Source of the DNA: Hyphomicrobiales bacterium
GTDB taxonomy: Bacteria; Pseudomonadota; Alphaproteobacteria; Rhizobiales; Rhizobiaceae
Length of the DNA: 64,000 nt
Direction of reading: 5' to 3'
Assembly: GCA_900466875.1 (NCBI GenBank)
Contig: UBNQ01000019.1
Span: forward strand, 1 to 64,000
Shown: positions 5,855 to 24,843 of the stretch, one piece after another
Layout of the letters: the number at the start of each line of letters is the position of its first letter
How positions within the stretch are numbered: position 1 is the first letter of the stretch
Program-made: the position numbers and the translations under genes
The notes under the pieces: model-generated
What the model was told of the DNA's origin: nothing
Seen by the model: only the letters and a program-made list of their open reading frames with translations
Database searches by the model: none

Positions 5855-8224
5855 ATGGATAGCCAAGAACCGGAAGCTTGCTCTCTCGGATTGACCACCG
5901 TCGATATCCTTGTATCGGGCGTGGTACAGGGCGTTGGTTTCAGACCCTTCGTCTACCGAATCGCCAATCAATTGGGCCTTCGCGGGACGGTCCTCAATGA
6001 CGGCAGGGGTGTGGCGATCGTCGCACAAGCACCTCAGCGACAGCTGGATGACTTTGTCAACGCATTGCGTCAGAAACACCCGCCGCTTGCAAAGATCGCC
6101 TCGCTAGAGGTCTCCCCCAGACAACACTCTTCGATCATAGAAACATTCAGGATCATTGCCAGCGGCACAGCCGCGACAAAGGCAAGCGCGTGGATACCTG
6201 CCGACACCTTCGTCTGCGATGACTGCCTGCATGAGATGTGCGATCCAACCGATCGCCGTTATCGTTACCCATTCATCAACTGCACCAATTGCGGTCCACG
6301 CTACTCGATCATCGAACGAATGCCCTATGATCGTGCGACGACAACCATGAGCCGCTTCGCCATGTGCCCGGCATGCAGTAGCGAATACGAAAATCCAGGC
6401 GACCGCCGGTTTCATGCGCAGCCCAATGCCTGCCCGATCTGCGGTCCACGCCTCCAGCTTGTCGATAGTGCCGGTACCAACGTCGCAACCGACGATATTC
6501 CAGGCTTTGTCAGGTCGGCCTTGCGTGAAGGCAAGATCGTCGCGATCAAGAGCGTCGGAGGCTTTCACCTCGCCGTCACACCCTTCGGTGAACAAGCCGT
6601 TGACGAACTGAGGAGAAGAAAAAGGCGGGACGCCAAGCCCTTTGCCCTGATGGCAGCCACCATCGACGTCGTCAGGCGCTACGCACATGTTTCATCAGAT
6701 GAGGCGGATGTTCTGGAATCACCCGCCCGCCCGATCGTGCTGCTCTCGCGCGCTTCCGATAGTGCCATCGCCAAGACCGTCGCGCCAAGGAGCCCGATGC
6801 TCGGCTTCATGCTGCCGTCGGCACCTCTGCATTACCTACTTCTTGAAGAACCAGACCTGCCGGCCATCGTTATGACGAGCGGCAATATCTCTGGCCAGCC
6901 TATCTGCCGCAGCAATGAAGAAGCACTGCGCGACCTCACATGTATCGCAGATTATGTCCTGCTGCACGATCGCGAAATTCACACCCGTGTGGACGACACC
7001 GTTATGCGGGTATCGCGAATGAACGATTGGGGGAGACCAAGTCTCACTTTCTTTCGACGTTCCCGCGGCTTTGCGCCAAACCCAATCCATCTGCCGGGAA
7101 AATCCGGCGCATCAATCTTTGCCTGCGGCGCAGAACTGAAGACAACGGTTGCAGTTTCGCGCGGCAATGAGGTTTTCCTCAGCCAACATATAGGCGACAT
7201 CAAGAACGAAGACACGTTTGCAGCCCATCAGGCAATCGCCGGTGAACTTGCACGCCTTAACGGTATCCGGCCACATGTGATCGCCTGTGACCTGCATCCC
7301 CAGTTCCGCGCGACCAGAGAGGCATTGGCGCAGACCACACTTTCGGTCGAACTCGTTCAGCACCACCATGCTCACATGGCGTCATGCATGGCGGAAAACG
7401 GACTGACCGGACAGACTATCGGGGTGATTTTCGATGGCACCGGTTATGGAACGGACGCCACGATCTGGGGTGGCGAATTTCTCGTCGGTGATTACGAGAC
7501 TTTCGAACGCGCCGCCCATCTGCGGCCCTCCCTGTTGCTGGGAGGCGATCAGGCCATCCACGAGCCTGTCAGGACTGCGATCGCGTTGTTGCTTGAAACA
7601 TTCGACACGCTTGAGGCCCTCCCGCCGATCCTGCCGCCATTACGCGTCCTCGATACGCAACAAAGGCGCATTTTCGAGATGATGTTTTCGAGGCGTATCA
7701 ACGCAATGCCGCATACCAGCATGGGCAGGTTGTTCGATGGTGTCGCCTCTTTGCTGGGCCTGTGCCATGCTGCCGAATATGAGGGACATGGGCCGATCGA
7801 TCTCGAGGCACGCCTCGGCCGTGATCACCGGATGGCTGAACCATTCGAATACGCCATCGAGGTAAACGAAGGCGGACGACTGGAGATCGATTTTCGGCCC
7901 ATCGTCCGGTGCCTTGTCGACGGGTTGGCAAAAAATGTGCCGACAGCCCTGCTCAGCCGCCGCTTTCACTCGACCATCGTTCATGTCACAAGCCAGGTCT
8001 GCGAGCGCTTGTCGGAGCGTTTCGGCACGCGGCAGATGGTTCTGAGCGGTGGTGTTTTCCTGAATGAATTTCTGCTCGTCAATACCTTCGCCCGTCTGCA
8101 GTCTCTTGGCTATTCGGTCCATTATCAGACGGCTGTCCCGCCCAATGACGGCGGCATTTCGCTCGGCCAGGTGGCCGTCGCCAATGCAAGGGCCCTCCGT
8201 CGCGCTGCGGCATTGTCGCAGTGA
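5855..8224 (+). CDS. hypF: HypF carbamoyltransferase, [NiFe]-hydrogenase maturation
   Basis: HypF makes thiocarboxamide from carbamoyl phosphate and ATP for the cyanide ligands of the NiFe active site. The 789 residues have the full domain order. There is an acylphosphatase-like domain (VSGVVQGVGFRPF, catalytic Arg30) and two paired C4 zinc fingers (Cys121/124 with 143/146, and Cys171/174 with 193/196). A YrdC-like domain follows (about 205-400, RRDAKPFALMA), then a C-terminal Kae1-like domain with the metal-binding HHHAHMASC near residue 500 and GVIFDGTGYGTD. The length is slightly above the usual 750. It lies 109 bp upstream of cooM, but the CooA-like site falls between them. HypF may therefore be expressed independently of CO. 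Confidence 0.96.
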   Translation: MDSQEPEACSLGLTTVDILVSGVVQGVGFRPFVYRIANQLGLRGTVLNDGRGVAIVAQAPQRQLDDFVNALRQKHPPLAKIASLEVSPRQHSSIIETFRIIASGTAATKASAWIPADTFVCDDCLHEMCDPTDRRYRYPFINCTNCGPRYSIIERMPYDRATTTMSRFAMCPACSSEYENPGDRRFHAQPNACPICGPRLQLVDSAGTNVATDDIPGFVRSALREGKIVAIKSVGGFHLAVTPFGEQAVDELRRRKRRDAKPFALMAATIDVVRRYAHVSSDEADVLESPARPIVLLSRASDSAIAKTVAPRSPMLGFMLPSAPLHYLLLEEPDLPAIVMTSGNISGQPICRSNEEALRDLTCIADYVLLHDREIHTRVDDTVMRVSRMNDWGRPSLTFFRRSRGFAPNPIHLPGKSGASIFACGAELKTTVAVSRGNEVFLSQHIGDIKNEDTFAAHQAIAGELARLNGIRPHVIACDLHPQFRATREALAQTTLSVELVQHHHAHMASCMAENGLTGQTIGVIFDGTGYGTDATIWGGEFLVGDYETFERAAHLRPSLLLGGDQAIHEPVRTAIALLLETFDTLEALPPILPPLRVLDTQQRRIFEMMFSRRINAMPHTSMGRLFDGVASLLGLCHAAEYEGHGPIDLEARLGRDHRMAEPFEYAIEVNEGGRLEIDFRPIVRCLVDGLAKNVPTALLSRRFHSTIVHVTSQVCERLSERFGTRQMVLSGGVFLNEFLLVNTFARLQSLGYSVHYQTAVPPNDGGISLGQVAVANARALRRAAALSQ

Positions 8225-8242
8225 CCGCATGCACCGCTGAAT

Positions 8243-8258
8243 TGTCCGCTGGCTGACG
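8243..8258 (+). promoter_or_regulatory. Candidate CooA operator upstream of cooM
   Basis: TGTCC-GCTGGC-TGACG matches 8 of 10 defined positions of the CooA site TGTCR-N6-YGACA as I remember it from Rhodospirillum rubrum. It lies 75 bp before the cooM ATG. A TTCTAT at 8277-8282 could be the -10 box, which would put the operator centre near -38, the position of a class II CRP-type activator. Its better copy is at 15751-15766. Confidence 0.6.
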
Positions 8259-8333
8259 GAAATCCTACCACAATCGTTCTATCCGGGTTTCGATCACCTG
8301 CAAGGGGCGGGTACGAGCGTACGGTTGCGGTTA

Positions 8334-11300
8334 ATGACAGATATTTCAAGCATAGGCTGGATCGGCCTTCTCCTCACCCTTGCCAGCGAAATCGCTGCAC
8401 TGCTGATGATCCGGGATATCCGCAGAATGCTGTCGGCATCCTGCATTGCCGAAATCGGCTATGTGTTGATGGGGATCGGTGCGGGAACACTGATAGGTGA
8501 TACCGGTGCGCTGATGCATCTCGGCTACCAGGTCGTCATGCGTCTGTTGGTGATCACTGCCGCCGCCCAGTTGATCCGGCGCACCGGCTCATCGAAACTC
8601 GACGATCTTGTCGGCAGTTCCGAGCGCGTTCCTTTCGCCTCGCTGATGTTCGGTTTCGGAATGTTCTCGGTCATGGGCCTGTCGCCGTTCAAGGGTGCTT
8701 TCTCGAAATTCGTCATCCTCTACGCCGATATCGAGAACGGCGCGTGGATACTGGCGCTTGGCGGAACCATCGCCAGCATGATCAGCGCGGTCTATTTCAT
8801 CCGTGTGGTCCAGGCGATCTGTCTTCAGCGCCAGACCCACGGCATCCTGCAGGACAAGCCGATCTCGTTCTTCACATTGACCGCGGCCGATATACCGATG
8901 GCGGTACTGGCCGTGATCACGATCGGGCTCAGCTTGTTTCCAGAACCGTTTCTCGATGCGGCAGCCCATGCGGCAGGCATGGTCGATCTCTCGCAGCTAC
9001 CCGAATTCGAGACTGGCTGGAGCGCTCAGGTCCTCCTTCCCTATCTCGGCGGATTCCTGCTCTTTGTCCTGGGCCGTTTCTCACAGAACCTGCGAAGTGT
9101 CGGAGCCGTCACGATTGCCCTTGCGACGCTGGTTATGATGGCAACCTCGTTGAGGCTGGGTGATGTCGGCGATTATTTCGCCCTTATTTTCGCGGGTATT
9201 GGACTTGCCGTCACGGTCTATTCGGTCCGCTACATGGTGCATTCGCATGCGGCCAACCGTTACTATTTCTTTCTTTTCATCATGATCGGCTCGCTGATCG
9301 GCGTGGCGACCTCTAATCACCTCGGCAATTTCTATCTGTTCTGGGAGTTGATGACCTGGAGTTCCTACCTGCTCGTCATCCATGAGCAGACTGAAAAGGC
9401 GCTCAAGGCCGGCAAGACATATTTCCTCATCTGCGCGTCCGGCGCTTATGTCATGCATCTGGGCATCCTCATACTCCACGCCCAGCTCGGCACGTTCGAG
9501 CTTGCAGAAATCGCCGAACGCATGCCGCAACTGACGCCAGTCATGAGCGGCCTGATCGCAGTCCTTTTCCTGATCGGCCTCGGGTCGAAGGCCGGCCTCT
9601 TTCCGCTGCACAGCTGGCTGCCCGAAGCGCATCCGGTGGCGCCGTCCTCCATTTCCGGGCCGATGTCGGGCATCCTCACCAAGGCCGGTCTTCTCGGCAT
9701 CGTCAAGATCCTGTTTGTCGCCTTCGGCGGCGCGGCCATTCTGCATCAGGATCTGCTTGGCGGCGTGACGGGCCCTGGCTTGGTTCTGATCCTGCTCGGC
9801 GCCATCACATTCCTGATCGGCGAGATCCAGGCTTACCGGCAGACCGACTTGAAGCGAATGCTCGCCTATTCGACGCTCGCCCAGATCGGCGAGATCACCA
9901 TGATAATCGGCGTCGGCACCTATCTCGCTCTTGCGGGTGCACTTACCCATATCGCCAATCACGCGATCATGAAGACCATGCTGTTCTTCTGCGCAGGCGC
10001 CTTCATCATGCGTGCTGCCGGCCATGCCCAGAGCCTGAACGCGCTAAAGGGCATCGGCCGCAAAATGCCGTTCACCGCGTTTTGCATGGGCATCGGCCTG
10101 CTGTCTATCATGAGCGTGCCGCCGTTCAGCGGTTTCGTCAGCAAGTTCATGATGATCTATGCCAGCGTCGAGGCCGGGCTTTATCCGGTTGCCGTCGTGA
10201 TGCTGACCGGCGGTGTGATCGGCGCCATCTATTATGCCCGCATCTTGCGGGTGATATTCTTCGAACCCTATCATGGCCCTGAAATTTCGGAGGCACCCCT
10301 TGCAATGCGCTGCGTGGTCGGCGCTCTTGCGACACTCACTGTTGTCAACGGCCTCTATCCCGATGCGCTGCTGCAGCTGGTCACGCCGGTGATCGATCGG
10401 CTTGCTGCTTCCAGTGATCTCCTTCCCGCGGCCTTGCCACCGGTCACCATGCAATGGTCGTTGGCCGCGGCTGTCGCCGCCATCGGCGCAATCACGGTCT
10501 ATCTTTTCAGCCGCGGCCATGCCGTGCGTGCCGGCACCCTGTCAGTCATCGTGATGATAGCAGCTCTTGCCGCCGTCGTCTGGCAGGCAAGCCGCTATGA
10601 CGCGCTCTCCTTCTGGTATGCGATCACCATTGTCGCGATGGGGGCGATCAACCTCTGCTATTCGATCGGTTACATGGCGCATGGCCGGTCGCAGAACCGG
10701 TTCTGTTTCTATTTTATCGCCATGATCGCCGGCCTTCTCGGCGTCACGGCCAGCGGCAATCTGTTCTCCTTCTTCGCCTTCTGGGAATTGATGAGCAGCT
10801 GGACACTGTTCCTCGTGATCAGCCATGACGAAACAGAAGATGCGCTGCGCGAAGGCACCAAATATTTCGTCTTCAATTTCGCCGGCGCCAGTATCCTGTT
10901 TCTCGGGGTCACCATGCTGGCAGCATTGGCCGGCACGTTCCAGATTGCCGACCTCGCTACAGCCGTCTCCACAGTGCCGCCCGTCGATCTGATTTTCCCG
11001 ACGGCGCTGATCCTCATCGGCTTCCTGATGAAAGCGGCGCAACTGCCGTTCCGGATCGACTACCAGATGCACACCGTCCCCGCCCCGACCCCGGTCAGCG
11101 GCTATATCTCGGCGGTGCTGCTGAAGGTCGGCCCATACGGAGTGCTTAAATTCTTCGTCGCGCTCGGCGGCGGTGCAGCCTTCATCCGCATGGCGGAGAC
11201 GGCAAGCTGGATGCCGAACCTGATGCAGGCAACACAGGTCATCGCCGCAATTACCGTGCTCTATGCCGGCGCCATGGCCGTCGTGCAAAGCGGTATCAAG

Positions 11301-12155
11301 CGGCTTTTAATCTACAGCACCGTCAGCCAGCTCGGCTATATCCTGCTGGCGCTGTCGCTCGGCACCTCACTCGGCATTGCCAGCGGCCTGATGCATGCCG
11401 TCAACCACATGCTGTTGAAAAATGCCCTCTTCCTCGTCGCAGGGTGCATTCTTGCGCAGGCGCATATCAACAGCCTCGACGAACTCGGCGGCCTTGGTCG
11501 GAAAATGCCGGTGACCTTCGCCGTCTTCCTGTTTGCCGGCCTGTCGCTCGCCGGCATCCCGCCGCTCAACGGTTTCGGCTCGAAGCTCCTGATCTACGAG
11601 GCGGCATTCGAGAGCGGGCATTACATGCTGGGACTGTCCGCCCTCATGTCGAGCTTGTTCACGCTCGCGGCCATCCTGAAATTCGCCCACACCGCCTTCA
11701 TGGGACAGATTTCCGAAAGAGCCTCAAAGATGAGGGACGCTCCGATGGTCATGCTGGCACCGATGCTGCTCCTCGTCGGGGCGAGCATCGTGGTCGGCCT
11801 CTTTCCAGGCCTGCTTCTTGTGCCGATCGCCCACGTTCAGGCAGCTCTCGACCTCGAACCGGTGCAGGCAAGCTGGCTGGGCGGCCTGCCGGGCGTGTCT
11901 TCCTACAATCCGCTCGTCATGACGATCGCGCTCGTCGCGACGGGCCTGATCGGCTGGCTCTATTATCGGCTATCCGGCAGCCGGCATGTGACGAGCTATG
12001 TGCATACGGGCGGTGGCGTAATGATCCCGAATGCCCGCATGCACCTGCCGGCATCCGCGCTTTACGAAACGCCTGAACGTCTGATCCGGCTGGCCTTGCG
12101 CGACAAGCCGTCGATCCAGGACCCGCAAACAGAAAGCCATGCCCATGACCTCTGA
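8334..12155 (+). CDS. cooM: CooM, giant antiporter-like membrane subunit of CO-linked hydrogenase
   Basis: This 1273-residue membrane protein is related to NuoL/NuoN, HycC and Mrp antiporter subunits and forms the ion-translocating arm of the hydrogenase. Three antiporter-like parts can be seen: a short N-terminal one (to about residue 220) and two full modules (about 230-710 and 730-1240). Each full module has the conserved FWELMTW/FWELMSS helix, a conserved central helix pair (SKAGLFPLHSWLPEAHP in the first) and the NHAIMKTMLFF / NHMLLKNALFL segment. CooM of R. rubrum is unusually large in the same way. The ATG at 8334 is used; a TTG at 8325 is also in frame and neither has a strong ribosome-binding site. 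The 3' end overlaps cooK. Confidence 0.93.
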   Translation: MTDISSIGWIGLLLTLASEIAALLMIRDIRRMLSASCIAEIGYVLMGIGAGTLIGDTGALMHLGYQVVMRLLVITAAAQLIRRTGSSKLDDLVGSSERVPFASLMFGFGMFSVMGLSPFKGAFSKFVILYADIENGAWILALGGTIASMISAVYFIRVVQAICLQRQTHGILQDKPISFFTLTAADIPMAVLAVITIGLSLFPEPFLDAAAHAAGMVDLSQLPEFETGWSAQVLLPYLGGFLLFVLGRFSQNLRSVGAVTIALATLVMMATSLRLGDVGDYFALIFAGIGLAVTVYSVRYMVHSHAANRYYFFLFIMIGSLIGVATSNHLGNFYLFWELMTWSSYLLVIHEQTEKALKAGKTYFLICASGAYVMHLGILILHAQLGTFELAEIAERMPQLTPVMSGLIAVLFLIGLGSKAGLFPLHSWLPEAHPVAPSSISGPMSGILTKAGLLGIVKILFVAFGGAAILHQDLLGGVTGPGLVLILLGAITFLIGEIQAYRQTDLKRMLAYSTLAQIGEITMIIGVGTYLALAGALTHIANHAIMKTMLFFCAGAFIMRAAGHAQSLNALKGIGRKMPFTAFCMGIGLLSIMSVPPFSGFVSKFMMIYASVEAGLYPVAVVMLTGGVIGAIYYARILRVIFFEPYHGPEISEAPLAMRCVVGALATLTVVNGLYPDALLQLVTPVIDRLAASSDLLPAALPPVTMQWSLAAAVAAIGAITVYLFSRGHAVRAGTLSVIVMIAALAAVVWQASRYDALSFWYAITIVAMGAINLCYSIGYMAHGRSQNRFCFYFIAMIAGLLGVTASGNLFSFFAFWELMSSWTLFLVISHDETEDALREGTKYFVFNFAGASILFLGVTMLAALAGTFQIADLATAVSTVPPVDLIFPTALILIGFLMKAAQLPFRIDYQMHTVPAPTPVSGYISAVLLKVGPYGVLKFFVALGGGAAFIRMAETASWMPNLMQATQVIAAITVLYAGAMAVVQSGIKRLLIYSTVSQLGYILLALSLGTSLGIASGLMHAVNHMLLKNALFLVAGCILAQAHINSLDELGGLGRKMPVTFAVFLFAGLSLAGIPPLNGFGSKLLIYEAAFESGHYMLGLSALMSSLFTLAAILKFAHTAFMGQISERASKMRDAPMVMLAPMLLLVGASIVVGLFPGLLLVPIAHVQAALDLEPVQASWLGGLPGVSSYNPLVMTIALVATGLIGWLYYRLSGSRHVTSYVHTGGGVMIPNARMHLPASALYETPERLIRLALRDKPSIQDPQTESHAHDL

Positions 12156-13104
12156 TACATTCCGAACCCTGCTGACTGTGCTGGTCTTTCCGGGAGGGCT
12201 GTTCGCCATGGCACTGGGACTTGCGCTGAAAGGTGTCGAGCGACGGGCGATCGCCCGTCTGCAGCGTCGCATCGGGCCGCCGCTCATCCAGCCCTTCTAC
12301 GACCTGGTCAAGCTGATGCGGAAGCGAACCCTCATTCCAGATACCGCCAATGCCTTTGTCTTCCTGGCCGTACCAGTCGCAGGTCTTGCCAGCATGGCGG
12401 TTGCCGCATCGATGATCCCGATCCCCGGTTTTTACGAGCCAAGCACGGGTCTCGGCAATCTCGTCGTGCTGTTCTACCTGATCTCGATCCCCGCAGTATC
12501 GCTGATGCTCGCCGGATCAGCGTCCGGTTCTCCCTATGGCGCAATCGGTTTTTCGCGCGAGATGGCGATTGTACTGGCCTATGAAGGACCGATCCTTCTG
12601 TCGCTGGTGGCCGTGGCGCTGCATGCCGGTGCCGTGACCGGCCAGCCGATCCTGCTCAGCCTGACCGAGATCGTCCGTTACCAGCAGGAACATGGTGCCT
12701 TCCTGTTCGATCCGTGGATGTGGCCGGCACTTCTCACCTATCTCTGCTTCATTCCGGCCAATCTCGGTATCGCGCCCTTCGATATCCCGGAGGCCGAATC
12801 GGAAGTGCTGGAAGGGCCGTTGGTGGAATACTCCGGCCCGCCGCTCGGGCTCATGAAGCTGATGTCCGTCACCAAGTCCGTCGTCGTGCTCGGGCTTGGC
12901 ATCGCGCTGTTCTTCCCCAACGGCCCCGCTGGCCTCGCCGGGTTGTTCATCTTTCTCGTCAAATGCCTCGTGCTTGTTCTCGCCGTGTCGGTGCTGAAGG
13001 CCGCGGTCGGACGCATGCGCATCGATCAGGCCGTGCTCTTCTATCTCAAATGGCCTGAACTGCTCGGCTTTGCCGGGCTCGCTCTCGTCATCGCTCGCTT
13101 CTAG
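12145..13104 (+). CDS. cooK: CooK, NuoH/HycD-like membrane subunit
   Basis: A 319-residue membrane protein of the NuoH/HycD/EchB family that anchors the hydrogenase arm and forms the quinone-site-equivalent connection to the ion path. Conserved family segments include LKGVERRAIARLQRRIGPP near the N-terminus, FSREMAIVLAYEGP in the middle and the loop FDIPEAESEVLEGPLVEYSGPP. About eight transmembrane helices are expected. The second ATG (12145) has AGAAAG eight bases ahead and is preferred; an in-frame ATG at 12139 would add two residues. It overlaps the end of cooM by 11 bp, indicating translational coupling. Confidence 0.93.
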   Translation: MTSDTFRTLLTVLVFPGGLFAMALGLALKGVERRAIARLQRRIGPPLIQPFYDLVKLMRKRTLIPDTANAFVFLAVPVAGLASMAVAASMIPIPGFYEPSTGLGNLVVLFYLISIPAVSLMLAGSASGSPYGAIGFSREMAIVLAYEGPILLSLVAVALHAGAVTGQPILLSLTEIVRYQQEHGAFLFDPWMWPALLTYLCFIPANLGIAPFDIPEAESEVLEGPLVEYSGPPLGLMKLMSVTKSVVVLGLGIALFFPNGPAGLAGLFIFLVKCLVLVLAVSVLKAAVGRMRIDQAVLFYLKWPELLGFAGLALVIARF

Positions 13105-13115
13105 GAAATCGCCCA

Positions 13116-13544: not shown

Positions 13545-13553
13545 GAGACAGTC

Positions 13554-16793: not shown

Positions 16794-16809
16794 TCGAGGA
16801 GGCTCATTG

Positions 16810-18810
16810 ATGGCCTGTCTAGACTGCTCCAGCTGCTCGTGCGATCCCGCTGCCACCGAAATGCTCGCGATTGCCGAAGCCCAAAGCATCGATACCGCCT
16901 GGAGCCGCTACGCGGCGCAGCAGCCGCAATGCGGTTTCGGAACCACCGGCCTTTGCTGTCGCATCTGTCTGAAAGGACCGTGCAGGATCGACCCGTTCGG
17001 CAAAGGCCCGCAATTCGGCGTCTGCGGTGCCGACCGTGACACGATCGTCGCCCGCCATATGGTGCGCATGATGGCATCGGGCGCGGCCGCCCATTCCGAG
17101 CACGGTCGTCACATCGCGCTTGCCATGCTGCATTTAAGCAAAGGCCATCTGAAGGACTATTCGATTCGCGATCAGGAAAAGCTGATGGTCGTTGCCAAGC
17201 GACTGGGTGTGAAGACCGACGATCGCGAGCTGATGGCGATTGTCAGAGAGCTTGCCGACATCACCCTCAGTGACTTCCAGAACCAGGATTATGATAAGCC
17301 CTGCAATTGGCTGAGTGCATCGCTTCCGGCACCACGCCTGAAGAAGCTTGGCGAGCTGGAGCTTCTGCCGCACAATATCGATGCTTCCGTCGCCCAGTCC
17401 ATGTCGCGCACGCATCTCGGTTGCGATGCCGATCCGACCAACCTGATCCTTGGCGGCCTGCGCGTGGCGCTTGCCGACCTCGATGGCGAGATGCTGGCAA
17501 CGGAACTATCCGACACGCTGTTCGGCACACCATCGCCGATCAAGACAACATCCAATATGGGGGTCCTGAAAAAAGAGGCAGTTAACATTGCCGTCAACGG
17601 TCACAATCCGCTCCTGTCGGACATCATCTGCGACGTCGCCGCCGACCTCAACGCCGAGGCCAAAGCGGCAGGCGCCAAGGAAGGTATCAACGTCATCGGC
17701 ATCTGCTGCACCGGCAACGAGATCATGGTGCGCCATGGCATTCCGCTCGCCACCAACTACCTTTCTCAGGAATTGCCGATCTTGACCGGGGCGCTGGATG
17801 CCATGGTTCTCGACGTCCAGTGCATCATGCCGTCGCTGCCACGGGTGGCTGAATGCTTCCATACGAAGATCATCACCACCGACAAACATAACAAGATCGC
17901 CGGCGCCATGCATATGGAGTTCGATGATACGAAGGCTTCGGAGAATGCGGCATCGATCCTGCGCGTCGCCATCGAAGCCTTCAGACAGCGTGATCCGAAA
18001 CGGGTGCATATCCCGAACTTCAAGCAGGAAGCCATTGTCGGCTTCAGTCTCGAAGCCATTACGGCGGCGCTTTCCAATATCAATGCCGACGATCCGCTTC
18101 AGCCACTCGTCGACAACATCGTCAACGGCAATATTCAGGGCGTCGTCCTGTTTGCCGGCTGCAACAATACCAAGACGCAGCAGGACAGCGCCTATCTCGA
18201 TATCGCTCTATCGCTTGCGGCTCGCAACGTGCTGGTTCTCGCGACAGGCTGTGCTGCCGGTGCCTATGCCAAGGCGGGCCTGATGACGCAGGACGCCACC
18301 CGCCTTTATGCCGGCGAAGGCTTGAAGAGCGCGCTTACGGCAATCGGCGAGTCTGCCGGAATGAACGGCCCCTTGCCGCTGGTTCTGCATATGGGATCCT
18401 GCGTCGACAACAGCCGCGGCGTCGCACTCGGCACGGCATTGGCCAACAAGCTCGGCGTCGATCTCTCCGACCTGCCGCTTGTCGCCAGCGCCCCAGAAGC
18501 CATGACGGAGAAAGCCGTGGTCATCGGTAGCTGGGCGGTCACGATCGGCCTTCCCACTCACCTTGGCACTGTTCCGCCGATTGTCGGCTCCGATGTCGTG
18601 ACCACGCTTGTTACCGACACGGCCCGGGATCTTCTGGGCGGATATTTCATCGTCGAGACCGATCCGGCCCTCGCAGCTGACAAGCTGTTCGACGCCATCC
18701 AGCAGCGCCGTAGCGGCCTGGGCCTCAAGACCTATAGCGCACCGGCTCCCGTTGCGCGGACGAAACTCGGATCGCGGCAGATGCCGCTTCTGCCGGAGCA
18801 GGTGTCATGA
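16810..18810 (+). CDS. cooS: CooS, anaerobic Ni-Fe carbon monoxide dehydrogenase
   Basis: Catalyses CO + H2O -> CO2 + 2 H+ + 2 e-. All expected residues of the 666-residue protein fall at the numbers known for R. rubrum CooS. The D-cluster has Cys41 and Cys49, and the B-cluster Cys50/53/58/72. The [Ni-4Fe-5S] C-cluster has His265, Cys300 (GICCTGNE), Cys338 (VQCIMP), Cys451 (FAGCNNTK), Cys481 (ATGCAAG) and Cys531 (MGSCVDNS). The acid-base residues His95 and Lys568 are also present. An N-terminal CLDCSSCSC stretch adds further cysteines. The ribosome-binding site is GAGGAGG. The gene overlaps cooC by 4 bp. The enzyme is oxygen-sensitive by family knowledge, implying anaerobic or microaerobic use. 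Confidence 0.97.
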   Translation: MACLDCSSCSCDPAATEMLAIAEAQSIDTAWSRYAAQQPQCGFGTTGLCCRICLKGPCRIDPFGKGPQFGVCGADRDTIVARHMVRMMASGAAAHSEHGRHIALAMLHLSKGHLKDYSIRDQEKLMVVAKRLGVKTDDRELMAIVRELADITLSDFQNQDYDKPCNWLSASLPAPRLKKLGELELLPHNIDASVAQSMSRTHLGCDADPTNLILGGLRVALADLDGEMLATELSDTLFGTPSPIKTTSNMGVLKKEAVNIAVNGHNPLLSDIICDVAADLNAEAKAAGAKEGINVIGICCTGNEIMVRHGIPLATNYLSQELPILTGALDAMVLDVQCIMPSLPRVAECFHTKIITTDKHNKIAGAMHMEFDDTKASENAASILRVAIEAFRQRDPKRVHIPNFKQEAIVGFSLEAITAALSNINADDPLQPLVDNIVNGNIQGVVLFAGCNNTKTQQDSAYLDIALSLAARNVLVLATGCAAGAYAKAGLMTQDATRLYAGEGLKSALTAIGESAGMNGPLPLVLHMGSCVDNSRGVALGTALANKLGVDLSDLPLVASAPEAMTEKAVVIGSWAVTIGLPTHLGTVPPIVGSDVVTTLVTDTARDLLGGYFIVETDPALAADKLFDAIQQRRSGLGLKTYSAPAPVARTKLGSRQMPLLPEQVS

Positions 18811-19604
18811 AGATCGCCGTAACGGGCAAGGGCGGTGTCGGCAAATCCACGATCGTGGGTTTGCTGGCCCGCGCACTTGCTGACGATGGCTGGAAGGTGC
18901 TCGCCATCGATGCCGATCCCGACGCCAATCTGGCATCGGCGATCGGTGTGCCGTCTGACACGCTCGCGGATCTGAAGCCGATTTCGAAAATGGTCGATCT
19001 GGCCCGCGAGCGAACCGGAGCCACGGACGGACCCGGCTCGCATTTCATCCTCAATCCGAAAGTCGATGATATACCCGATGGCTTCAGCGTTGAACATGCC
19101 GGCGTGAAGATGCTGTTGATGGGAACCGTCAACCATGCAGGAACCGGTTGCGTCTGCCCTGAACATGCCCTCGTCCGTACTCTGCTACGCCATATCCTGA
19201 CCCGCAGGAAGGAATGCGTGCTGATCGACATGGAAGCCGGCATCGAGCATTTCGGTCGCGGAACGGTCGAGGCGGTGGACCTGCTGATCATCGTCGTCGA
19301 ACCTGGCGCCCGCAGCTTCCAGACCGCGAGACAGATCGAACTGTTCGCCGGCGAACTCGGGATCAAACAGGTCTGCTATGTGGCCAACAAGATCGCATCT
19401 GATGGGGACCATGCCTTCATCGCAGCCCGTGCAGGCGAATGCGATCTGCTCGCGAAAATGTCCTTCGACGTCTCGGTCCAGACGGCCGATCAGGCTGGCC
19501 TTTCCTTCTACGACAGCGGCCCGGTAGGTCGGGAGCGGGCAAAGTCCCTGATGCAGGCACTGCTTGAACGCCTGTCTGCGAAAGGAGATCTGCAATGTGC
19601 CTAG
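18807..19604 (+). CDS. cooC: CooC, nickel-insertion ATPase for CODH
   Basis: This 265-residue MinD/SIMIBI-class ATPase inserts nickel into the CooS C-cluster. The deviant Walker A motif KGGVGKST is at residues 8-15 (signature lysine at 8). The metal-binding CxC motif (GTGCVCPEHALVR) at Cys115 and Cys117 forms the dimeric nickel/zinc site in CooC proteins. It overlaps cooS by 4 bp and cooT by 10 bp, so it is made in step with its target. Confidence 0.95.
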   Translation: MKIAVTGKGGVGKSTIVGLLARALADDGWKVLAIDADPDANLASAIGVPSDTLADLKPISKMVDLARERTGATDGPGSHFILNPKVDDIPDGFSVEHAGVKMLLMGTVNHAGTGCVCPEHALVRTLLRHILTRRKECVLIDMEAGIEHFGRGTVEAVDLLIIVVEPGARSFQTARQIELFAGELGIKQVCYVANKIASDGDHAFIAARAGECDLLAKMSFDVSVQTADQAGLSFYDSGPVGRERAKSLMQALLERLSAKGDLQCA

Positions 19605-19798
19605 CAACCGTAACCATCAATCGCGCTCCGTCGCCACCAGTGGCGATCGACGACGTCACGATCGTCAGTCTGGCTGACGGATACGTGCAAGTCTCCACTC
19701 TGTTTGGTGAGGAGCACCGCTTCACCGGCGTTTCCATCCGGCACATCGACACGCGCAAAGGCGTGACCATTCTGTTTGAGGAGGATCATTCTCTATGA
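19595..19798 (+). CDS. cooT: CooT, small nickel-binding protein
   Basis: A 67-residue protein starting MCLATVTI, the hallmark of the CooT family, in which Cys2 contributes to a nickel site at the dimer interface. In R. rubrum cooT lies between cooC and cooJ, exactly as here. The N-terminus resembles HypC (MCLAI...), but the rest (DGYVQVSTLFGEEHRFTGVSI) is CooT-like. Start and stop overlap cooC and cooJ. Confidence 0.88.
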   Translation: MCLATVTINRAPSPPVAIDDVTIVSLADGYVQVSTLFGEEHRFTGVSIRHIDTRKGVTILFEEDHSL

Positions 19799-20037
19799 CA
19801 CCGGAACATCAGGTAAAAATTCGACTTCGCACCTACGTAGCCCACTTTACCGACCATGTGGAAGACCATCTTGCCGAGATCAGTGCGCTCAAGCCCTCGC
19901 TCGCAGATGATGCTCAACTGACCCAACTTCTCGAACAGGCTATCGCGGATATGCAGACCGCACGCCAATCACTGCGGGCGGTTCTCGGTTCGCTTGAGGC
20001 TCCTCCAGCCACAGGTCACGGACACCATGCCCACTGA
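19795..20037 (+). CDS. cooJ: CooJ-like nickel chaperone with short histidine tail
   Basis: An 80-residue protein immediately after cooT, the position of cooJ in R. rubrum. The N-terminal part has spaced histidines (VAHFTDHVEDHLAEI) and two helical stretches. The C-terminus is GHGHHAH, only a few histidines, whereas R. rubrum CooJ has a long His-rich tail. It is therefore probably a CooJ homologue with reduced nickel storage capacity. The assignment rests on position, size, helical character and terminal histidines. A 4-bp overlap with cooT suggests coupling. Confidence 0.7.
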   Translation: MTPEHQVKIRLRTYVAHFTDHVEDHLAEISALKPSLADDAQLTQLLEQAIADMQTARQSLRAVLGSLEAPPATGHGHHAH

Positions 20038-20125
20038 TTTTCATCAAGGCGCAGGATGCGCCGAAGGCTACGCTTGTGCCGCAGGATTTCTTGCCGGCTG
20101 CTGAAGCCGGCGTTCGGGAGGCAAT

Positions 20126-20791
20126 ATGACGGCACGATTCAGCATAGCCCATGTTCTGACCGGCCCGGCCGGTGAAGGCTTTTTCAACGGGTTTCAGGCG
20201 CGGTCTCACAGCAAGGGGAGCATGATCTGTTTCGGCGAGAATGACGAGAACGGCATCTTCGTCGTGATGAACGGCAGGCTGCGTGTCTACATGGTTGGCG
20301 AGGACCGGGAGATCACCCTGTTCTATCTGGTCTCCGGTGACATCTTCTGTCGCCATTCGGGCTGTCTGATCGAGGCGGTCGAACAGAGCGAGCTGCGCGT
20401 TACCGACATGAGGACATTCGCAGCCAAGATGGAAAAGACCCCTGCCCTGTCGCATGGCCTCATCTCCATCCTTGGCCGCGCGATCATCTCCTGCATGAGA
20501 AACATCGAAGAACTGATGTTTCTCGATATCAAGCAGCGCGTCGCCTGGTTCTTCCTGGATCATGCGACGGCAGAAAACGAAAAAGCGAATTTCGGCGTCA
20601 GGCTTTCGATCGACCTCACGGTCGAAGAAATCGCCAACCTGATCGGATCGTCGCGACAGGCGACATCGACGGCGATGAACAGCCTGATCAAGGACGGCCA
20701 TCTCGAGCGCCATGGCCGCACGGATTACACCATACCGGACAAGGGTCGCCTGAAAGCGGCTGCGGCGACGGGCAGACTATCGGCACGGTGA
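20126..20791 (+). CDS. cooA: CooA, haem-based CO-sensing transcription activator
   Basis: A 221-residue CRP/FNR-superfamily protein that is clearly CooA. The sensor domain has the redox-switching haem ligands Cys75 and His77 in GDIFCRHSGC at the same positions as R. rubrum CooA. The DNA-binding domain carries VEEIANLIGSSRQATST. CO binding to the ferrous haem would activate the coo promoters at 8243 and 15751. One difference stands out: R. rubrum CooA begins Met-Pro-Pro and uses the Pro2 amine as second haem ligand, while this protein begins Met-Thr-Ala. A GGGAGG ribosome-binding site precedes the ATG, so the start is secure. An 88-bp gap with a short GC hairpin (about 20091-20109) separates it from cooJ. 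Confidence 0.95.
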   Translation: MTARFSIAHVLTGPAGEGFFNGFQARSHSKGSMICFGENDENGIFVVMNGRLRVYMVGEDREITLFYLVSGDIFCRHSGCLIEAVEQSELRVTDMRTFAAKMEKTPALSHGLISILGRAIISCMRNIEELMFLDIKQRVAWFFLDHATAENEKANFGVRLSIDLTVEEIANLIGSSRQATSTAMNSLIKDGHLERHGRTDYTIPDKGRLKAAAATGRLSAR

Positions 20792-20810
20792 TCTTGCCGG
20801 AGGCCGCGAT

Positions 20811-21434
20811 GTGAAACAACATTTACGAAGAAAGACGACGACCATGTACGCAAAAATGACAAAGACAGCCGCTCTGGGGCTTGTCGCACTTTTGGCACCG
20901 ACACTTGCATTCGCCCATCCCGGCCTGCATCCCGGCGCAGGTCTCATCGAGGGCTTTGCCCACCCCATGTCTGGCCTCGACCATATCCTGGCGATGGTGG
21001 CCGTCGGCCTTCTCGCCTTCCAGATGGGCGGTCGCGCTCTCTGGCTGCTGCCGGCAACATTCGTCCTCGTGATGGCAGGCGGCGGTGCGCTCGGCGCTAC
21101 CGGCATTGAAATACCCGCGGTCGAGATCGGAATTGCCCTGTCGGTTCTCGTGCTGGGTGCGATCGTGGCCTGCGATATCAAGATGCCGGTCGCTCTTGCC
21201 ACGGGAATGGTCGGCCTCTTCGCCATCCTGCACGGCCACGCCCATGGTTCTGAAATGGCGCAGGGCGTGAACGGCTTCATCTATGCGGCCGGCTTCATGA
21301 CCGCAACGGTCGTGCTGCATCTCGTCGGCATCGGCTCCGGCCTGCTCGTTACCCGGATCGGCCCGGTCGCTGTCCGCACGGCGGGCGGTATCGCAGTTGT
21401 TGCCGGCATCGGCATGCTGAGCGGTCTGGTTTGA
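20811..21434 (+). CDS. hupE: HupE/UreJ-family nickel permease
   Basis: A 207-residue membrane protein, probably a nickel importer supplying the hydrogenase and CODH. It has an N-terminal signal-like helix ending at AFA-HPG, the family signature HPMSGLDHILAMVAVG, histidines near HGHAHG and about six transmembrane segments. A GTG at 20811 with GGAGG seven bases upstream is the best start; internal ATGs at 20844 and 20856 are alternatives with poorer spacing. It lies 19 bp after cooA and just before hypB, so nickel uptake, insertion and regulation are packed together. Confidence 0.88.
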   Translation: MKQHLRRKTTTMYAKMTKTAALGLVALLAPTLAFAHPGLHPGAGLIEGFAHPMSGLDHILAMVAVGLLAFQMGGRALWLLPATFVLVMAGGGALGATGIEIPAVEIGIALSVLVLGAIVACDIKMPVALATGMVGLFAILHGHAHGSEMAQGVNGFIYAAGFMTATVVLHLVGIGSGLLVTRIGPVAVRTAGGIAVVAGIGMLSGLV

Positions 21435-21496
21435 CAATGATCCGGCAGCGCCCGTGACGACCGGGCCTGCCTACCTTATGAAAGGGATTTGCGACG

Positions 21497-22393
21497 ATGT
21501 GTTCCATTTGTGGCTGCGGTGAGGCTCGTGTCGAAGGACATCCTTCGCACCGCCATCCCCCTATGAACGATGCCGAGCATGCTGCGCTGCATGCCGCGGG
21601 CATAGCGCACAGCCATGCACATGAGAACGGGCATGGGCACGATGGCCACCACCATCATGCCCATGACGACATGCAGTACGGCAACGGTGTTGCCGGTGTG
21701 TCCGTAGCCGGGTTGGATCAGCATCAGGTTATCCGGCTGGAGAAGGCGGTTCTGTCGCATAATGACGGTCTGGCACGGCAAAACCGCGAGGTATTTTCCC
21801 GTGCCGGTATTCTTGCTCTGAACCTCCTGTCGAGCCCCGGTTCCGGCAAAACTACATTGCTCTGCGAGACAATAAAAACGATTGCCGACACGTTACCGGC
21901 AGTCGTCATCGAAGGCGACCAGCAGACGAGTTTCGATGCGGACCGTATTCGCGCCACCGGTGCACCGGCAATCCAGATCAATACCGGCAAGGGCTGCCAT
22001 CTCGATGCGGCGATGGTTGCCGACGCATATCAACGACTGTCTCCTGCACCGGGGACGATCCTGTTTATCGAGAATGTCGGAAACCTTGTCTGTCCGGCAG
22101 CCTTCGATCTGGGAGAAGCCGCCAAGGTGGTCATCCTTTCGGTGACGGAGGGCGAGGACAAACCGCTCAAATACCCGGATATGTTTGCTGCCGCCGATCT
22201 GCTGATCATCAACAAGATCGACCTTGCGCCCTATGTCAGCTTCAATGTCGAAAGCTGCCTGGAGATGGCACGCCGGATCAACCCCGACCTTGCCGTCCTG
22301 CAGCTTTCCGCCACGACTGGTGAAGGCTTTGATGCATGGCTGCAATGGATCACCGAGAAACAACAGGCGGTAAATTCGCGCCTTGGTTCGTGA
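21497..22393 (+). CDS. hypB: HypB GTPase, nickel insertion
   Basis: This 298-residue GTPase hands nickel to the hydrogenase large subunit with HypA. The N-terminal CSICGCG (Cys2, Cys5, Cys7) is the high-affinity nickel motif. A histidine-rich stretch (residues 15-56, including DGHHHHAHDD) may store nickel. The GTPase domain has the Walker A motif SSPGSGKTT, conserved EGDQQTSFDADRI and NKIDL. The long His tract is typical of rhizobial HypB proteins and compensates for the short tail of the CooJ-like protein, by inference. Confidence 0.95.
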   Translation: MCSICGCGEARVEGHPSHRHPPMNDAEHAALHAAGIAHSHAHENGHGHDGHHHHAHDDMQYGNGVAGVSVAGLDQHQVIRLEKAVLSHNDGLARQNREVFSRAGILALNLLSSPGSGKTTLLCETIKTIADTLPAVVIEGDQQTSFDADRIRATGAPAIQINTGKGCHLDAAMVADAYQRLSPAPGTILFIENVGNLVCPAAFDLGEAAKVVILSVTEGEDKPLKYPDMFAAADLLIINKIDLAPYVSFNVESCLEMARRINPDLAVLQLSATTGEGFDAWLQWITEKQQAVNSRLGS

Positions 22394-22412
22394 TCGGAAA
22401 GGACAAGTCGTC

Positions 22413-22661
22413 ATGTGTCTTGCGATACCAGCGGAGGTGACTGAGCTTCTGCCCGGCTCCATGGGGCGTGTCCGGATCGACGGCATCTTCAAGATGGTTA
22501 GCCTGGCACTGGTAGATGGTGTCGAGGTCGGAGACTACGTTCTCCTGCATGTCGGATTTGCCCTGAGCCGCATTGACCCTCAGGAGGCGGCAGAAACACT
22601 GGCGCTGTTGAGGGAGATGGGCGAACTCGCGGAGCTCGAACCAGCGGAGCTTCCCGGATGA
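22413..22661 (+). CDS. hypC: HypC chaperone
   Basis: An 82-residue hydrogenase chaperone starting MCLAIPAEV, in which Cys2 binds the Fe(CN)2CO precursor with HypD. The ATG at 22413 was chosen because it gives the invariant MCLAIP start and has GGAAAGGAC upstream; the frame is open for ten more codons toward hypB. It overlaps hypD by 4 bp. The family and size (usually 75-95 residues) fit. Confidence 0.93.
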   Translation: MCLAIPAEVTELLPGSMGRVRIDGIFKMVSLALVDGVEVGDYVLLHVGFALSRIDPQEAAETLALLREMGELAELEPAELPG

Positions 22662-23785
22662 AATTCGCCTCGGAGTTTCGCGACGGAGGCTTGGCACGCC
22701 GGATCGCGACGGCCATCGCCGTCGAATGCCAACCCGGCCGCAGCTACAGTTTCATGGAGTTCTGCGGCGGACATACCCACACCATTGCCCGATACGGACT
22801 TGAAGCGATGCTGCCGGCCGCAATCCGCCTTGTGCATGGACCGGGCTGCCCTGTCTGCGTTCTCCCGGTTGGCCGCATCGACAGCGGTATAGAGCTTGCC
22901 CGCGATCACGGTGTCATTCTTTGCACCTATGGCGATATGATGCGCGTTCCCGGTTCGCATCGTCTGAGCCTGCTCAAGGCCAAGGCTGCCGGCGGCGACA
23001 TCCGTATGGTCTGGTCGACGCTCGATGCACTTAAGATCGCACGCGACAATCACGATCGTGAAGTCGTCTTCTTCGCGATAGGCTTCGAGACGACTACCCC
23101 TCCCACCGCCATGGCATTGAAAATGGCAAAGGCGGAAGGTCTCACGAACTTCAGCATATTCTGCAATCATGTGCTCACACCATCGGCGATGCGGGCGGTG
23201 CTTCAGGGCGGTAGTCTGCCGCTTGAAGGTGTGATCGGCCCGGGACATGTCTCGGCTGTGATCGGCATCGATCCGTACCGGGAATTCTCCGATCGCGGCA
23301 TGCCGGTCGTTGTTGCCGGCTTCGAGCCACTCGATCTGTTGCAGGCCATATTAATGCTGGTGCGGCAGGTAAACGAGGATCGGCCTAGCGTCGAAAACGC
23401 CTATGTGCGAGCGCTGCCGGCCACAGGAAACGAGAGAGCGCAACAAGCTATTGCCGAGACGATGAAGATGCGCGACAGCTTCGAATGGCGCGGGCTCGGT
23501 ACATTGCCCGACAGTGCGCTCAGACTTGCCGATGACTATGCAGAGTTCGATGCCGAGGCGCGTTTTTCTCTTCCCTATCGAACCATCCCCGACCCGAAAT
23601 CCTGTGCCTGCGCCGAGGTCGTGCGCGGCATAAAGCGACCACAGGAATGCCCGCTATTCGGCCGCAGCTGCACGCCCGACAATCCGATTGGGTCCTGCAT
23701 GGTGTCGAGCGAAGGCGGGTGTGCAGCCCATTGGCTTTATGGCCGCCACCAGATGACGAATGACGGCAGAAAGAACGTTGTATGA
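22658..23785 (+). CDS. hypD: HypD, Fe-CN/CO ligand assembly protein
   Basis: A 375-residue iron-sulfur protein that builds the Fe(CN)2CO unit together with HypC and HypE. Recognisable motifs are EFCGGHTHT near residue 36, GPGCPVCVLP near residue 65, GFETTTPP near residue 145, and the C-terminal [4Fe-4S] cysteines in CACAEV, ECPLFGRSC and GGCAAHW. It overlaps hypC and hypE by 4 bp each, so the last three genes of the block form one coupled unit. Confidence 0.95.
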   Translation: MKFASEFRDGGLARRIATAIAVECQPGRSYSFMEFCGGHTHTIARYGLEAMLPAAIRLVHGPGCPVCVLPVGRIDSGIELARDHGVILCTYGDMMRVPGSHRLSLLKAKAAGGDIRMVWSTLDALKIARDNHDREVVFFAIGFETTTPPTAMALKMAKAEGLTNFSIFCNHVLTPSAMRAVLQGGSLPLEGVIGPGHVSAVIGIDPYREFSDRGMPVVVAGFEPLDLLQAILMLVRQVNEDRPSVENAYVRALPATGNERAQQAIAETMKMRDSFEWRGLGTLPDSALRLADDYAEFDAEARFSLPYRTIPDPKSCACAEVVRGIKRPQECPLFGRSCTPDNPIGSCMVSSEGGCAAHWLYGRHQMTNDGRKNVV

Positions 23786-24843
23786 ACGCGAATGCTCACC
23801 GAAACCGCCATCTGTTTCCGCGGCCACTGGACATGGTCGACGGGCGGGTTGATCTCACGCATGGTGGCGGCGGTCGAGCCATGGCGCAGCTCATATCCGA
23901 GCTGTTTGCCGGCGCATTCGACAATCCCTATCTCGCCCAGGGCAATGACATGGCGGTAATGCCACCGACCGGGGGACGGCTGGTCATGTCGACGGATGGG
24001 TATGTCGTATCGCCGATCTTCTTTCCCGGCGGCGATATCGGCTCGCTGGCGGTGCATGGCACGGTCAACGACGTCGCCATGAGCGGCGCACGACCTCTCT
24101 ATCTGTCGGCAAGCTTCATTCTTGAGGAAGGCCTTCCATTGGCGGATCTGAAGCAGATCGTCGAAAGCATGGCGACGGCAGCGAAACAAGCGGACGTCCT
24201 GATCGTTACCGGCGATACCAAGGTAGTAGAGCGTGGCAAGGCAGACGGCATCTTCATCGTCACCACCGGTGTCGGCTCGTTGCAGGACGAGTTGCATATC
24301 GCGGGCGACCGGATCAGGCCCGGCGATGCGATCATCCTTTCGGGTACGATCGGCGACCACGGTATCGCCCTCCTGTCGAAACGCGAAAATCTGGAGTTCG
24401 AGACCACCATTGAAAGCGACAGTGCGCCGCTCCACGGACTGATCAGGGCGATGATCGAAGCCGACCCCGACATCCATTGTCTGCGTGACCCGACCCGCGG
24501 TGGTCTTGCCGCCACACTCAACGAACTGGCGCATCAATCAGGCCTCGGCATGATCGTCGATGAGGATGCCGTACCGATCAAGCCGGCGGTGCGCGGCGCC
24601 TGCGAATTGCTCGGCATCGACCCAATCGGCGTGGCAAACGAAGGAAAGCTGATCGCATTTTGCTCCCCCGATAAGGCTGAGGCACTGGTCGCTGTGATGC
24701 GCCGTCAGCCGTTTGGCGAGAATGCCGTGATCATTGGGCATGCACAGCCGGACCCTCGACGGCTCGTCTGGCTTAAAACATCATTTGGCGGTGAGCGGGT
24801 GATCGAATGGTTCAACGGCGAACAGCTTCCAAGGATCTGCTGA
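23782..24843 (+). CDS. hypE: HypE, cyanide-forming carbamoyl dehydratase
   Basis: This 353-residue PurM/AIR-synthase-like protein dehydrates the carbamoyl group delivered by HypF. It ends exactly in PRIC, so the C-terminal cysteine that carries the thiocyanate is intact. The glycine-rich DLTHGGGGRAM near residue 28 and TGDTKVVERGKADG near residue 140 are family motifs. It is the last gene of the coo-hyp block. No terminator is obvious, and the IS110 remnant begins 19 bp beyond the stop codon. Confidence 0.95.
   Translation: MNANAHRNRHLFPRPLDMVDGRVDLTHGGGGRAMAQLISELFAGAFDNPYLAQGNDMAVMPPTGGRLVMSTDGYVVSPIFFPGGDIGSLAVHGTVNDVAMSGARPLYLSASFILEEGLPLADLKQIVESMATAAKQADVLIVTGDTKVVERGKADGIFIVTTGVGSLQDELHIAGDRIRPGDAIILSGTIGDHGIALLSKRENLEFETTIESDSAPLHGLIRAMIEADPDIHCLRDPTRGGLAATLNELAHQSGLGMIVDEDAVPIKPAVRGACELLGIDPIGVANEGKLIAFCSPDKAEALVAVMRRQPFGENAVIIGHAQPDPRRLVWLKTSFGGERVIEWFNGEQLPRIC

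What the first reader, a model, noticed from the sequence alone, without database searches (positions are those of the whole stretch)
5855..24843. Complete CO-oxidising, hydrogen-evolving module on a rhizobial repABC-type replicon
cooMKLXUH, cooFSCTJ, cooA, hypABCDEF and a HupE/UreJ nickel permease lie together in 19 kb, about 13 kb from a repABC replicator of Rhizobiaceae type. The known pathway is CO + H2O -> CO2 + H2 with energy conservation, established in Rhodospirillum rubrum and Carboxydothermus. Finding the whole set with its own CO sensor on a plasmid of a normally aerobic, plant-associated lineage would make hydrogenogenic carboxydotrophy a transferable trait. I am not aware of a described case in Rhizobiaceae, but I cannot search for one.
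Basis: partly seen in the sequence, partly recalled or inferred. Interest (0 to 1): 0.92.

Follow-up and report, generated by a model that had tools for sequence, protein, structure and literature searches.

The report
CO-to-hydrogen gene cassette in a rhizobium
A Rhizobium-family bacterium carries, on a plasmid-type DNA molecule, a complete set of genes for drawing energy from carbon monoxide by turning it into hydrogen, a known pathway that seems to have jumped into and between rhizobia.

Summary
Window 5855-24843 carries 19 genes in R. rubrum-like order (hypF-cooMKLXUH-hypA-cooFSCTJ-cooA-hupE-hypBCDE), all open here, 12.7 kb from repCBA on one 183.6-kb contig. CooS keeps 14 of 14 checked residues, and CooH is the only [NiFe] large subunit matched in the genome. 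CooA-type boxes precede cooM and hypA-cooF in 5 of 5 loci aligned. The genome shares its GTDB genus with one deposited as Rhizobium wenxiniae (now Aliirhizobium, Rhizobiaceae). CooS passes the cut-off in 3 of 57 genus genomes and 1 of 394 sampled family genomes. CooS and CooH trees put the rhizobial copies beside Rhodopseudomonas/Tardiphaga. The cassette sits elsewhere in HU50, and synonymous divergence suggests exchange within the genus. No true RuBisCO and no CoxL were found, so extra energy or survival is likelier than autotrophy. Corrections: a 2019 table already lists a genome of this genus as a CODH-ECH carrier; circularity is unproven; no coupling-protein gene was matched on this contig. 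Known pathway, new host lineage and replicon.

The parts
5721..24844 (+). whole coo/hyp cassette: the stretch shared with HU50 (shared with AFS049984 from 5892) while the immediate flanks differ
5735..5748 (+). possible FixK/FnrN-type box upstream of hypF (TTGC-N6-TCAA), present upstream of hypF in 3 of 3 Rhizobiaceae copies; consensus recalled, a lead only
5855..8224 (+). hypF, carbamoyltransferase for [NiFe] maturation
   Evidence: TIGR00143, 751 bits
8243..8258 (+). putative CooA box before cooM (TGTC-N8-GACG)
   Evidence: in 5 of 5 loci aligned
8325..12155 (+). cooM, antiporter-like membrane subunit; likely start ATG at 8334
12139..13104 (+). cooK, NuoH-like membrane subunit
13116..13544 (+). 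cooL, NuoB-like hydrogenase small subunit
13554..14054 (+). cooX, NuoI-like iron-sulfur subunit
14051..14569 (+). cooU, NuoC-like subunit
14566..15651 (+). cooH, [NiFe] large subunit; ends at DPCISCTER with no C-terminal extension
15751..15766 (+). putative CooA box before hypA-cooFSCTJ (TGTCGTCTGGCTGACA), the only TGTC-N8-GACA in the 64-kb window
15827..16177 (+). hypA, nickel metallochaperone
16212..16793 (+). cooF, polyferredoxin linking CooS to the hydrogenase
16810..18810 (+). cooS, Ni-CODH catalytic subunit
18807..19604 (+). cooC, nickel-insertion ATPase (MinD/ParA-type)
19595..19798 (+). cooT
   Evidence: PF10133
19795..20037 (+). cooJ, short, ends GHGHHAH; named by position and His tail, no Pfam match
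20126..20791 (+). cooA, haem CO sensor/activator; Cys75 and His77 kept, residue 2 is Thr
20811..21434 (+). hupE/ureJ nickel permease
   Evidence: PF04955
21497..22393 (+). hypB
22413..22661 (+). hypC
22658..23785 (+). hypD, the only one matched in the genome
23782..24843 (+). hypE
24865..25092 (-). fragment of an IS110-family transposase at the right edge of the cassette
   Evidence: PF02371, 21.6 bits against cut-off 21.3; a second fragment tested at 24942-25187 gave no match
26234..35735 (.). L-rhamnose catabolism operon; 26247-31408 shared with AFS049984
37584..38813 (-). repC
38974..39957 (-). repB
39954..41150 (-). repA

Best explanation
This is a complete R. rubrum-type CO:proton oxidoreductase module. 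CooA binds CO and activates two transcripts (cooMKLXUH and hypA-cooFSCTJ). CooC/T/J, HypA/B and HupE supply nickel and HypCDEF build the [NiFe] site. CooS oxidises CO, CooF carries the electrons, and the membrane hydrogenase CooLXUHKM reduces protons to H2 while pumping ions. The host is a Rhizobiaceae bacterium. The cassette was acquired horizontally, its nearest named relatives being in Rhodopseudomonas and a Tardiphaga MAG, and it has since moved between sites and lineages in the genus. Gene content and residues are shown here; activity, induction and ion pumping are inferred from family knowledge; direction of transfer is inferred. The most likely role is extra energy or survival under anoxia with CO, not autotrophic growth.
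For: Gene set and order. 14 of 14 CooS ligand/catalytic residues (R. rubrum numbering recalled) kept in 3 of 3 Rhizobiaceae copies. CooH keeps both CxxC motifs and lacks a tail. CooA Cys75/His77 kept. Boxes TGTC-N8-GACA and TGTC-N8-GACG at the two expected promoters in 5 of 5 loci aligned, the first matching the printed TGTC(A/G)N6(C/T)GACA (PMC5371261, passages). dN/dS 0.01-0.22 in 18 of 18 comparable genes in both pairs. CooH and HypD are the only ones matched in the genome, so maturation came with the cassette. Three genomes of the genus hold the cassette and two share the rhamnose flank on the same side. Trees: (one clade for the Hyphomicrobiales-named rows rejected for CooH, p-AU 3e-9). 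dS(window-HU50)/dS(window-AFS049984) is 0.14-0.69 in 18 of 18 cassette genes against 0.98-1.34 in 6 of 6 chromosomal genes counted.
Against: No activity data. In relatives the cassette is not pristine: HU50 has a frameshift in cooM and a deleted hupE, and AFS049984 lacks 9 CooS residues. CooA lacks the recalled haem-ligand Pro2 in 3 of 3 Rhizobiaceae copies. A scan for TGTCG-N6-CGACA with up to 2 mismatches was not enriched over the window (45 found, 41.3 expected). No empty site was found for HU50 among the listed matches, and no shared 9-base repeat at the cassette ends. Only six chromosomal genes from one region were used for the dS contrast, and the CooH clade test was chosen after the CooS tree had been seen.
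Confidence: 0.85

Rival explanations
1. CO detoxification or scavenging: the cassette mainly removes CO (endogenous or from plant haem breakdown) that would poison oxidases or nitrogenase, with H2 as a by-product and little energy gain.
For: CO sensor present; no aerobic CoxL found in the genome, so this would be the only CO-removing route found.
Against: Retention of the full membrane hydrogenase under purifying selection fits energy conservation better; Ni-CODH is recalled to be oxygen-sensitive, so it could not protect aerobic respiration.
Confidence: 0.2
2. A decaying acquisition: intact here by chance, on its way to loss in the genus.
For: Found in 3 of 57 genus genomes; cooM frameshift and hupE loss in HU50; 9-residue CooS deletion in AFS049984.
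Against: 19 of 19 genes open in the window; dN/dS at most 0.22; promoter boxes conserved. The HU50 frameshift may be a sequencing error (not tested).
Confidence: 0.1
3. Assembly artefact or contaminant contig.
For: Draft genome in 60 contigs; closure of the replicon not shown.
Against: Same cassette in three separate genomes of the genus, two with the same rhamnose-operon neighbour, though at different spacing; G+C 59.5% against 60.2% for the rest of the contig; contamination estimate 0.01%.
Confidence: 0.03

Closest known systems
Rhodospirillum rubrum coo regulon (cooMKLXUH, cooFSCTJ, cooA)
   Same: same subunits and (recalled) order and two CooA-dependent promoters; CooS matches 1jqk at 1115 bits, CooH 73% identical
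   Different: hypF ahead, hypA between cooH and cooF, hupE and hypBCDE behind (R. rubrum layout recalled, locus not fetched); CooA starts MTAR instead of MPPR; Rhizobiaceae repABC replicon
Rhodopseudomonas rhenobacensis and Tardiphaga MAG coo proteins
   Same: nearest named relatives in both trees; R. rhenobacensis has the same gene order from cooM through hypB
   Different: in the 19.4-kb R. rhenobacensis stretch held, no hit to hupE, hypF, hypC, hypD or hypE at E 1e-5; its CooA begins MPPR
Pleomorphomonas carboxyditropha, mesophilic hydrogenogenic carboxydotroph (paper recalled; only citations of it seen)
   Different: CooS and CooH in a distinct branch, not sister to the rhizobial copies
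Rhizobiales bacterium AFS049984 (Omae et al. 2019 table; passages read)
   Same: same genus, same cassette, same rhamnose neighbour
   Different: no hupE hit, 9-residue CooS deletion; repABC not found on its 57.6-kb contig

Membership tests
CooA-regulated CODH/ECH (R. rubrum type) | Ni-CODH with C-, B- and D-cluster ligands | tested here: met
   14 of 14 positions (numbering recalled)
CooA-regulated CODH/ECH (R. rubrum type) | energy-converting [NiFe] hydrogenase subunits MKLXUH with Ni ligands and no processed tail | tested here: met
CooA-regulated CODH/ECH (R. rubrum type) | CooF and CooCTJ accessory proteins | tested here: met
   CooC by MinD/ParA-type matches and order, CooJ by position and His tail only
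CooA-regulated CODH/ECH (R. rubrum type) | CooA with haem ligands Cys75/His77 | tested here: met
CooA-regulated CODH/ECH (R. rubrum type) | Pro2 as the other haem ligand of R. rubrum CooA (recalled) | tested here: not met
   Thr2 in 3 of 3 Rhizobiaceae copies, Pro2 in R. rhenobacensis and Rhodobacter TJ_12. Recalled as not essential in mutants, and an N-terminal amine serves in other CooAs, so CO sensing is not excluded
CooA-regulated CODH/ECH (R. rubrum type) | CooA operators at both transcription units | tested here: met
   the cooM box departs from the printed consensus at two positions; the whole-window scan was not enriched
CooA-regulated CODH/ECH (R. rubrum type) | CO-dependent H2 evolution coupled to ion pumping | not testable with these tools
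   needs culture
repABC replicon | repA, repB, repC in tandem | tested here: met
repABC replicon | separate closed circle | tested here: inconclusive
   no exact terminal overlap; 183.6-kb contig of a draft
conjugative plasmid | type IV coupling protein on the same molecule | tested here: not met
   the only PF02534 match in the genome is on C47, not C11; other transfer genes were not searched and C11 may be only part of the molecule
autotrophic CO growth by the Calvin cycle | true RuBisCO large subunit | tested here: not met
   the single hit scores best on OiaX (392 bits, below its cut-off of 700), next to an OiaK-like kinase (247, cut-off 700); type III RuBisCO 225 against cut-off 497

The most novel reading that the evidence does not exclude
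A self-contained 19-kb CO-respiration cassette (sensor, enzyme, ion-pumping hydrogenase, all maturation and nickel uptake) circulates between replicons and species of plant- and soil-associated rhizobia, letting respiring bacteria survive anoxia on CO (for example CO from plant or microbial haem breakdown) while releasing H2 to neighbours.
Probability: 0.3. Interest if true: 0.75.

Novelty: new member of a known kind. Interest (0 to 1): 0.52.

Why it matters
It puts anaerobic, hydrogen-evolving CO metabolism into a family studied for aerobic, plant-linked life, as a compact cassette that has moved between sites. It is a natural test of whether the whole trait works on arrival in a host with no other [NiFe] hydrogenase found. 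It also yields a cheap prediction: some Rhizobiaceae isolates should make H2 from CO in the dark.

Tried and rejected
Empty-site test: the joined flanks of the HU50 copy (2316 bases) were searched in 57 genus genomes (5 candidates scored per genome, and the list of matches was cut). Among the listed matches none spanned the junction (one ran 8 bases past it). The first 164 bases or so of the right flank recur at several places in G032 and G037 and once, in part, in G026, so that flank may start in a mobile-element remnant. The insertion history is unresolved. Shared repeats of 9 bases or more between 5501-5860 and 24801-25300: none, direct or inverted. Plasmid records: no record covered 80% of window 1-25000; CooS found in 2 of 72,556 records, both distant (Acetoanaerobium, Ruminococcus). 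TGTCG-N6-CGACA with up to 2 mismatches over the window: not enriched; only the positional, cross-species comparison was informative. Aerobic CoxL: 6 MoCoBD proteins in the genome, 0 of 6 near the CoxL cut-off. CdhD search: one hit elsewhere (C20, 35.7 bits), not followed. Nitrogenase and denitrification genes were not searched. In one search, 13 chromosomal rows were printed; 7 were dropped before counting (6 frames antisense to the longer genes and 1 short frame inside a longer gene), each with dN above dS in at least one comparison.

Literature: nine searches of the open PMC library (papers listed of papers found): 20 of 241; 5 of 5; 9 of 9; 5 of 5; 20 of 31; 20 of 32; 10 of 167; 15 of 26; 1 of 1. 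In these listings and in the passages read I saw no paper describing the module in Rhizobiaceae beyond the 2019 table and a 2021 methods passage on the same four genomes (PMC6687684; PMC7811984; passages only). Passages of PMC13286885, PMC13240472, PMC10434624 and PMC6344411 were also read and say nothing of coo genes in Rhizobium. Papers outside this library and supplements were not searched.
Full report
What is there. The window is bases 1-64,000 of contig C11 (183,627 bases) of a 5.61-Mb draft genome in 60 contigs, estimated 99.98% complete. From 5855 to 24843, all on the + strand, lie hypF, cooM, cooK, cooL, cooX, cooU, cooH, hypA, cooF, cooS, cooC, cooT, cooJ, cooA, hupE, hypB, hypC, hypD and hypE; 19 of 19 translate without internal stops. 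Identities rest on NCBIfam and Pfam profiles and on solved structures: CooS to R. rubrum CODH 1jqk (1115 bits), CooA to R. rubrum CooA 1ft9 (302 bits), CooH to formate hydrogenlyase and Mbh large subunits. CooM, K, L, X and U are named from complex-I-like homology plus order; CooC from MinD/ParA-type matches plus order; CooJ by position and its His tail, as Pfam gives nothing. repC, repB and repA follow at 37584-41150, with a rhamnose catabolism operon in between.

Are the parts intact? All 14 CooS ligand and catalytic positions I checked (R. rubrum numbering from memory) are kept in the window, HU50 and AFS049984 copies. CooH has CSLC and a terminal DPCISCTER with no tail to be clipped, so I infer that no maturation protease is needed. 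It is the only [NiFe] large subunit matched in the genome, and hypD is also single, so the maturation genes serve this enzyme. CooA keeps Cys75 and His77, but residue 2 is Thr in 3 of 3 Rhizobiaceae copies where R. rhenobacensis and Rhodobacter TJ_12 have Pro.

Control. TGTC-N8-GACA occurs once in the 64-kb window, at 15751, between cooH and hypA. TGTC-N8-GACG occurs twice, one of them at 8243 between hypF and cooM. Both are at the same place in 5 of 5 loci aligned: window, HU50, AFS049984, R. rhenobacensis, Rhodobacter TJ_12 (other loci were not examined). The first fits the operator printed for R. [quoted passage not shown] The second departs at two positions. Against: a scan with TGTCG-N6-CGACA and up to two mismatches was no richer than shuffles (45 against 41.3). 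Upstream of hypF, TTGC-N6-TCAA is shared by 3 of 3 Rhizobiaceae copies. It resembles a FixK-type box (consensus recalled); six matches to that looser consensus occur in the window (one strand), so it is a lead only.

Whose genome. GTDB places the window in the same genus as G056 and G043. NCBI now files R. wenxiniae as Aliirhizobium, Rhizobiaceae; PMC10434624 proposed the move (passages). The best plasmid matches to repABC and the rhamnose region are Rhizobiaceae plasmids at about 79-81%.

Distribution. CooS passes the family cut-off in 3 of 57 genus genomes, 1 of 394 sampled family genomes (the window itself; HU50 and AFS049984 were evidently not drawn) and 4 of 397 sampled order genomes, the window included. 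A protein cluster whose representative is 97% identical to the window CooS has 53 member sequences in public data (P0001), which suggests further strains.

Origin and movement. In the CooS tree (50 rows) five rows, the three genus genomes and two unnamed proteins, form a 100/100 clade inside a 100/99 clade with R. rhenobacensis, a Tardiphaga MAG and one unnamed protein; Rhodobacter TJ_12 is near, Pleomorphomonas and a MAG labelled Phyllobacteriaceae are far off. The CooH tree (40 rows) agrees (7 rows, 100/99, with the Tardiphaga MAG and R. rhenobacensis), and holding the 10 Hyphomicrobiales-named or presumed rows together is rejected (p-AU 3e-9; the group was chosen after seeing the CooS tree). 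Between window and HU50 the match is C11 5721-20807 and 21382-24844, at 92% and 89%, and the immediate flanks do not match. AFS049984 has the cassette at 84% and 80% and also the rhamnose stretch 26247-31408 (87%) on the same side, at a wider spacing. HU50 lacks hupE but keeps its last bases, a deletion scar; AFS049984 lacks it too. Synonymous divergence: window-HU50 over window-AFS049984 is 0.14-0.69 in 18 of 18 cassette genes, but 0.98-1.34 in 6 of 6 chromosomal genes counted on the rpoB contig. HU50 and AFS049984 cassettes are about as far apart as window and AFS049984 (dS 0.50-0.96 in the 8 genes compared). So the cassettes of window and HU50 are closer than these chromosomal genes predict, which points to exchange inside the genus. 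Right of the cassette is a fragment of an IS110-type transposase, barely over its cut-off. No empty site or terminal repeat was found within the limits. G+C of cassette and rest of the contig are alike, 59.5% and 60.2%.

Selection. dN/dS lies between 0.01 and 0.22 in 18 of 18 genes for both comparisons (cooM of HU50 over its first 1025 codons only). The relatives are not pristine: HU50 cooM is frameshifted and AFS049984 CooS lacks nine residues. The window copy is the only one of the three with no such defect seen.

What the host can do with it. The single RuBisCO-family hit scores best on the RuBisCO-like OiaX (below its cut-off) next to an OiaK-like kinase. Six of six molybdenum hydroxylase candidates are far below the CoxL cut-off. 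So CO carbon is unlikely to feed a Calvin cycle and no aerobic CO oxidase was found. A 2026 study of Anoxybacillaceae reports the same kind of machinery serving survival when electron acceptors run out (PMC13077300, abstract and passages); I infer that this is the likelier role here.

Transfer claim. The genome has two repC matches, on C11 and C47. The only coupling-protein match is on C47. HU50's contig with the cassette shows no repABC. Movement is better ascribed to the cassette than to conjugation of this replicon, though mobilisation is not excluded and other transfer genes were not searched.

Verdict. A well-supported new host lineage for a known pathway, with good evidence of horizontal movement, and partly anticipated by a table in Omae et al. 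2019 (PMC6687684, passages). No function has been shown.

Noticed in passing
G056:C128 (HU50) near 173950: cooM of HU50 is split between two frames; a real frameshift or an assembly error.
   Followed up: partly
G056:C128 about 183363-183494: hupE deleted in HU50, leaving its last bases between cooA and hypB.
   Followed up: yes
G043:C46 16841-18805: AFS049984 CooS lacks nine residues (window CooS 218-226) in a region well conserved with R. rubrum.
   Followed up: partly
window 20126-20791: CooA of the three Rhizobiaceae copies starts MTAR; the recalled haem ligand Pro2 of R. rubrum CooA is missing.
   Followed up: partly
L009 14300-14899 (Rhodobacter sp. TJ_12): A hupE homologue (44% identity) sits in the same place between cooA and hypB, so the permease may be an old part of the module.
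   Followed up: partly
window 24865-25092: Fragment of an IS110-family transposase just after hypE.
   Followed up: partly
G056:C128 from 186860: The first about 164 bases right of the HU50 cassette recur in G032 and G037 (several places) and in part in G026; possible mobile-element remnant.
   Followed up: partly
G000:C36:6774-7616 (L068): RuBisCO-like protein beside a kinase, resembling the OiaX/OiaK pair but below both cut-offs.
   Followed up: partly
G000:C47: Second repABC contig, also carrying the genome's only type IV coupling-protein match.
   Followed up: no
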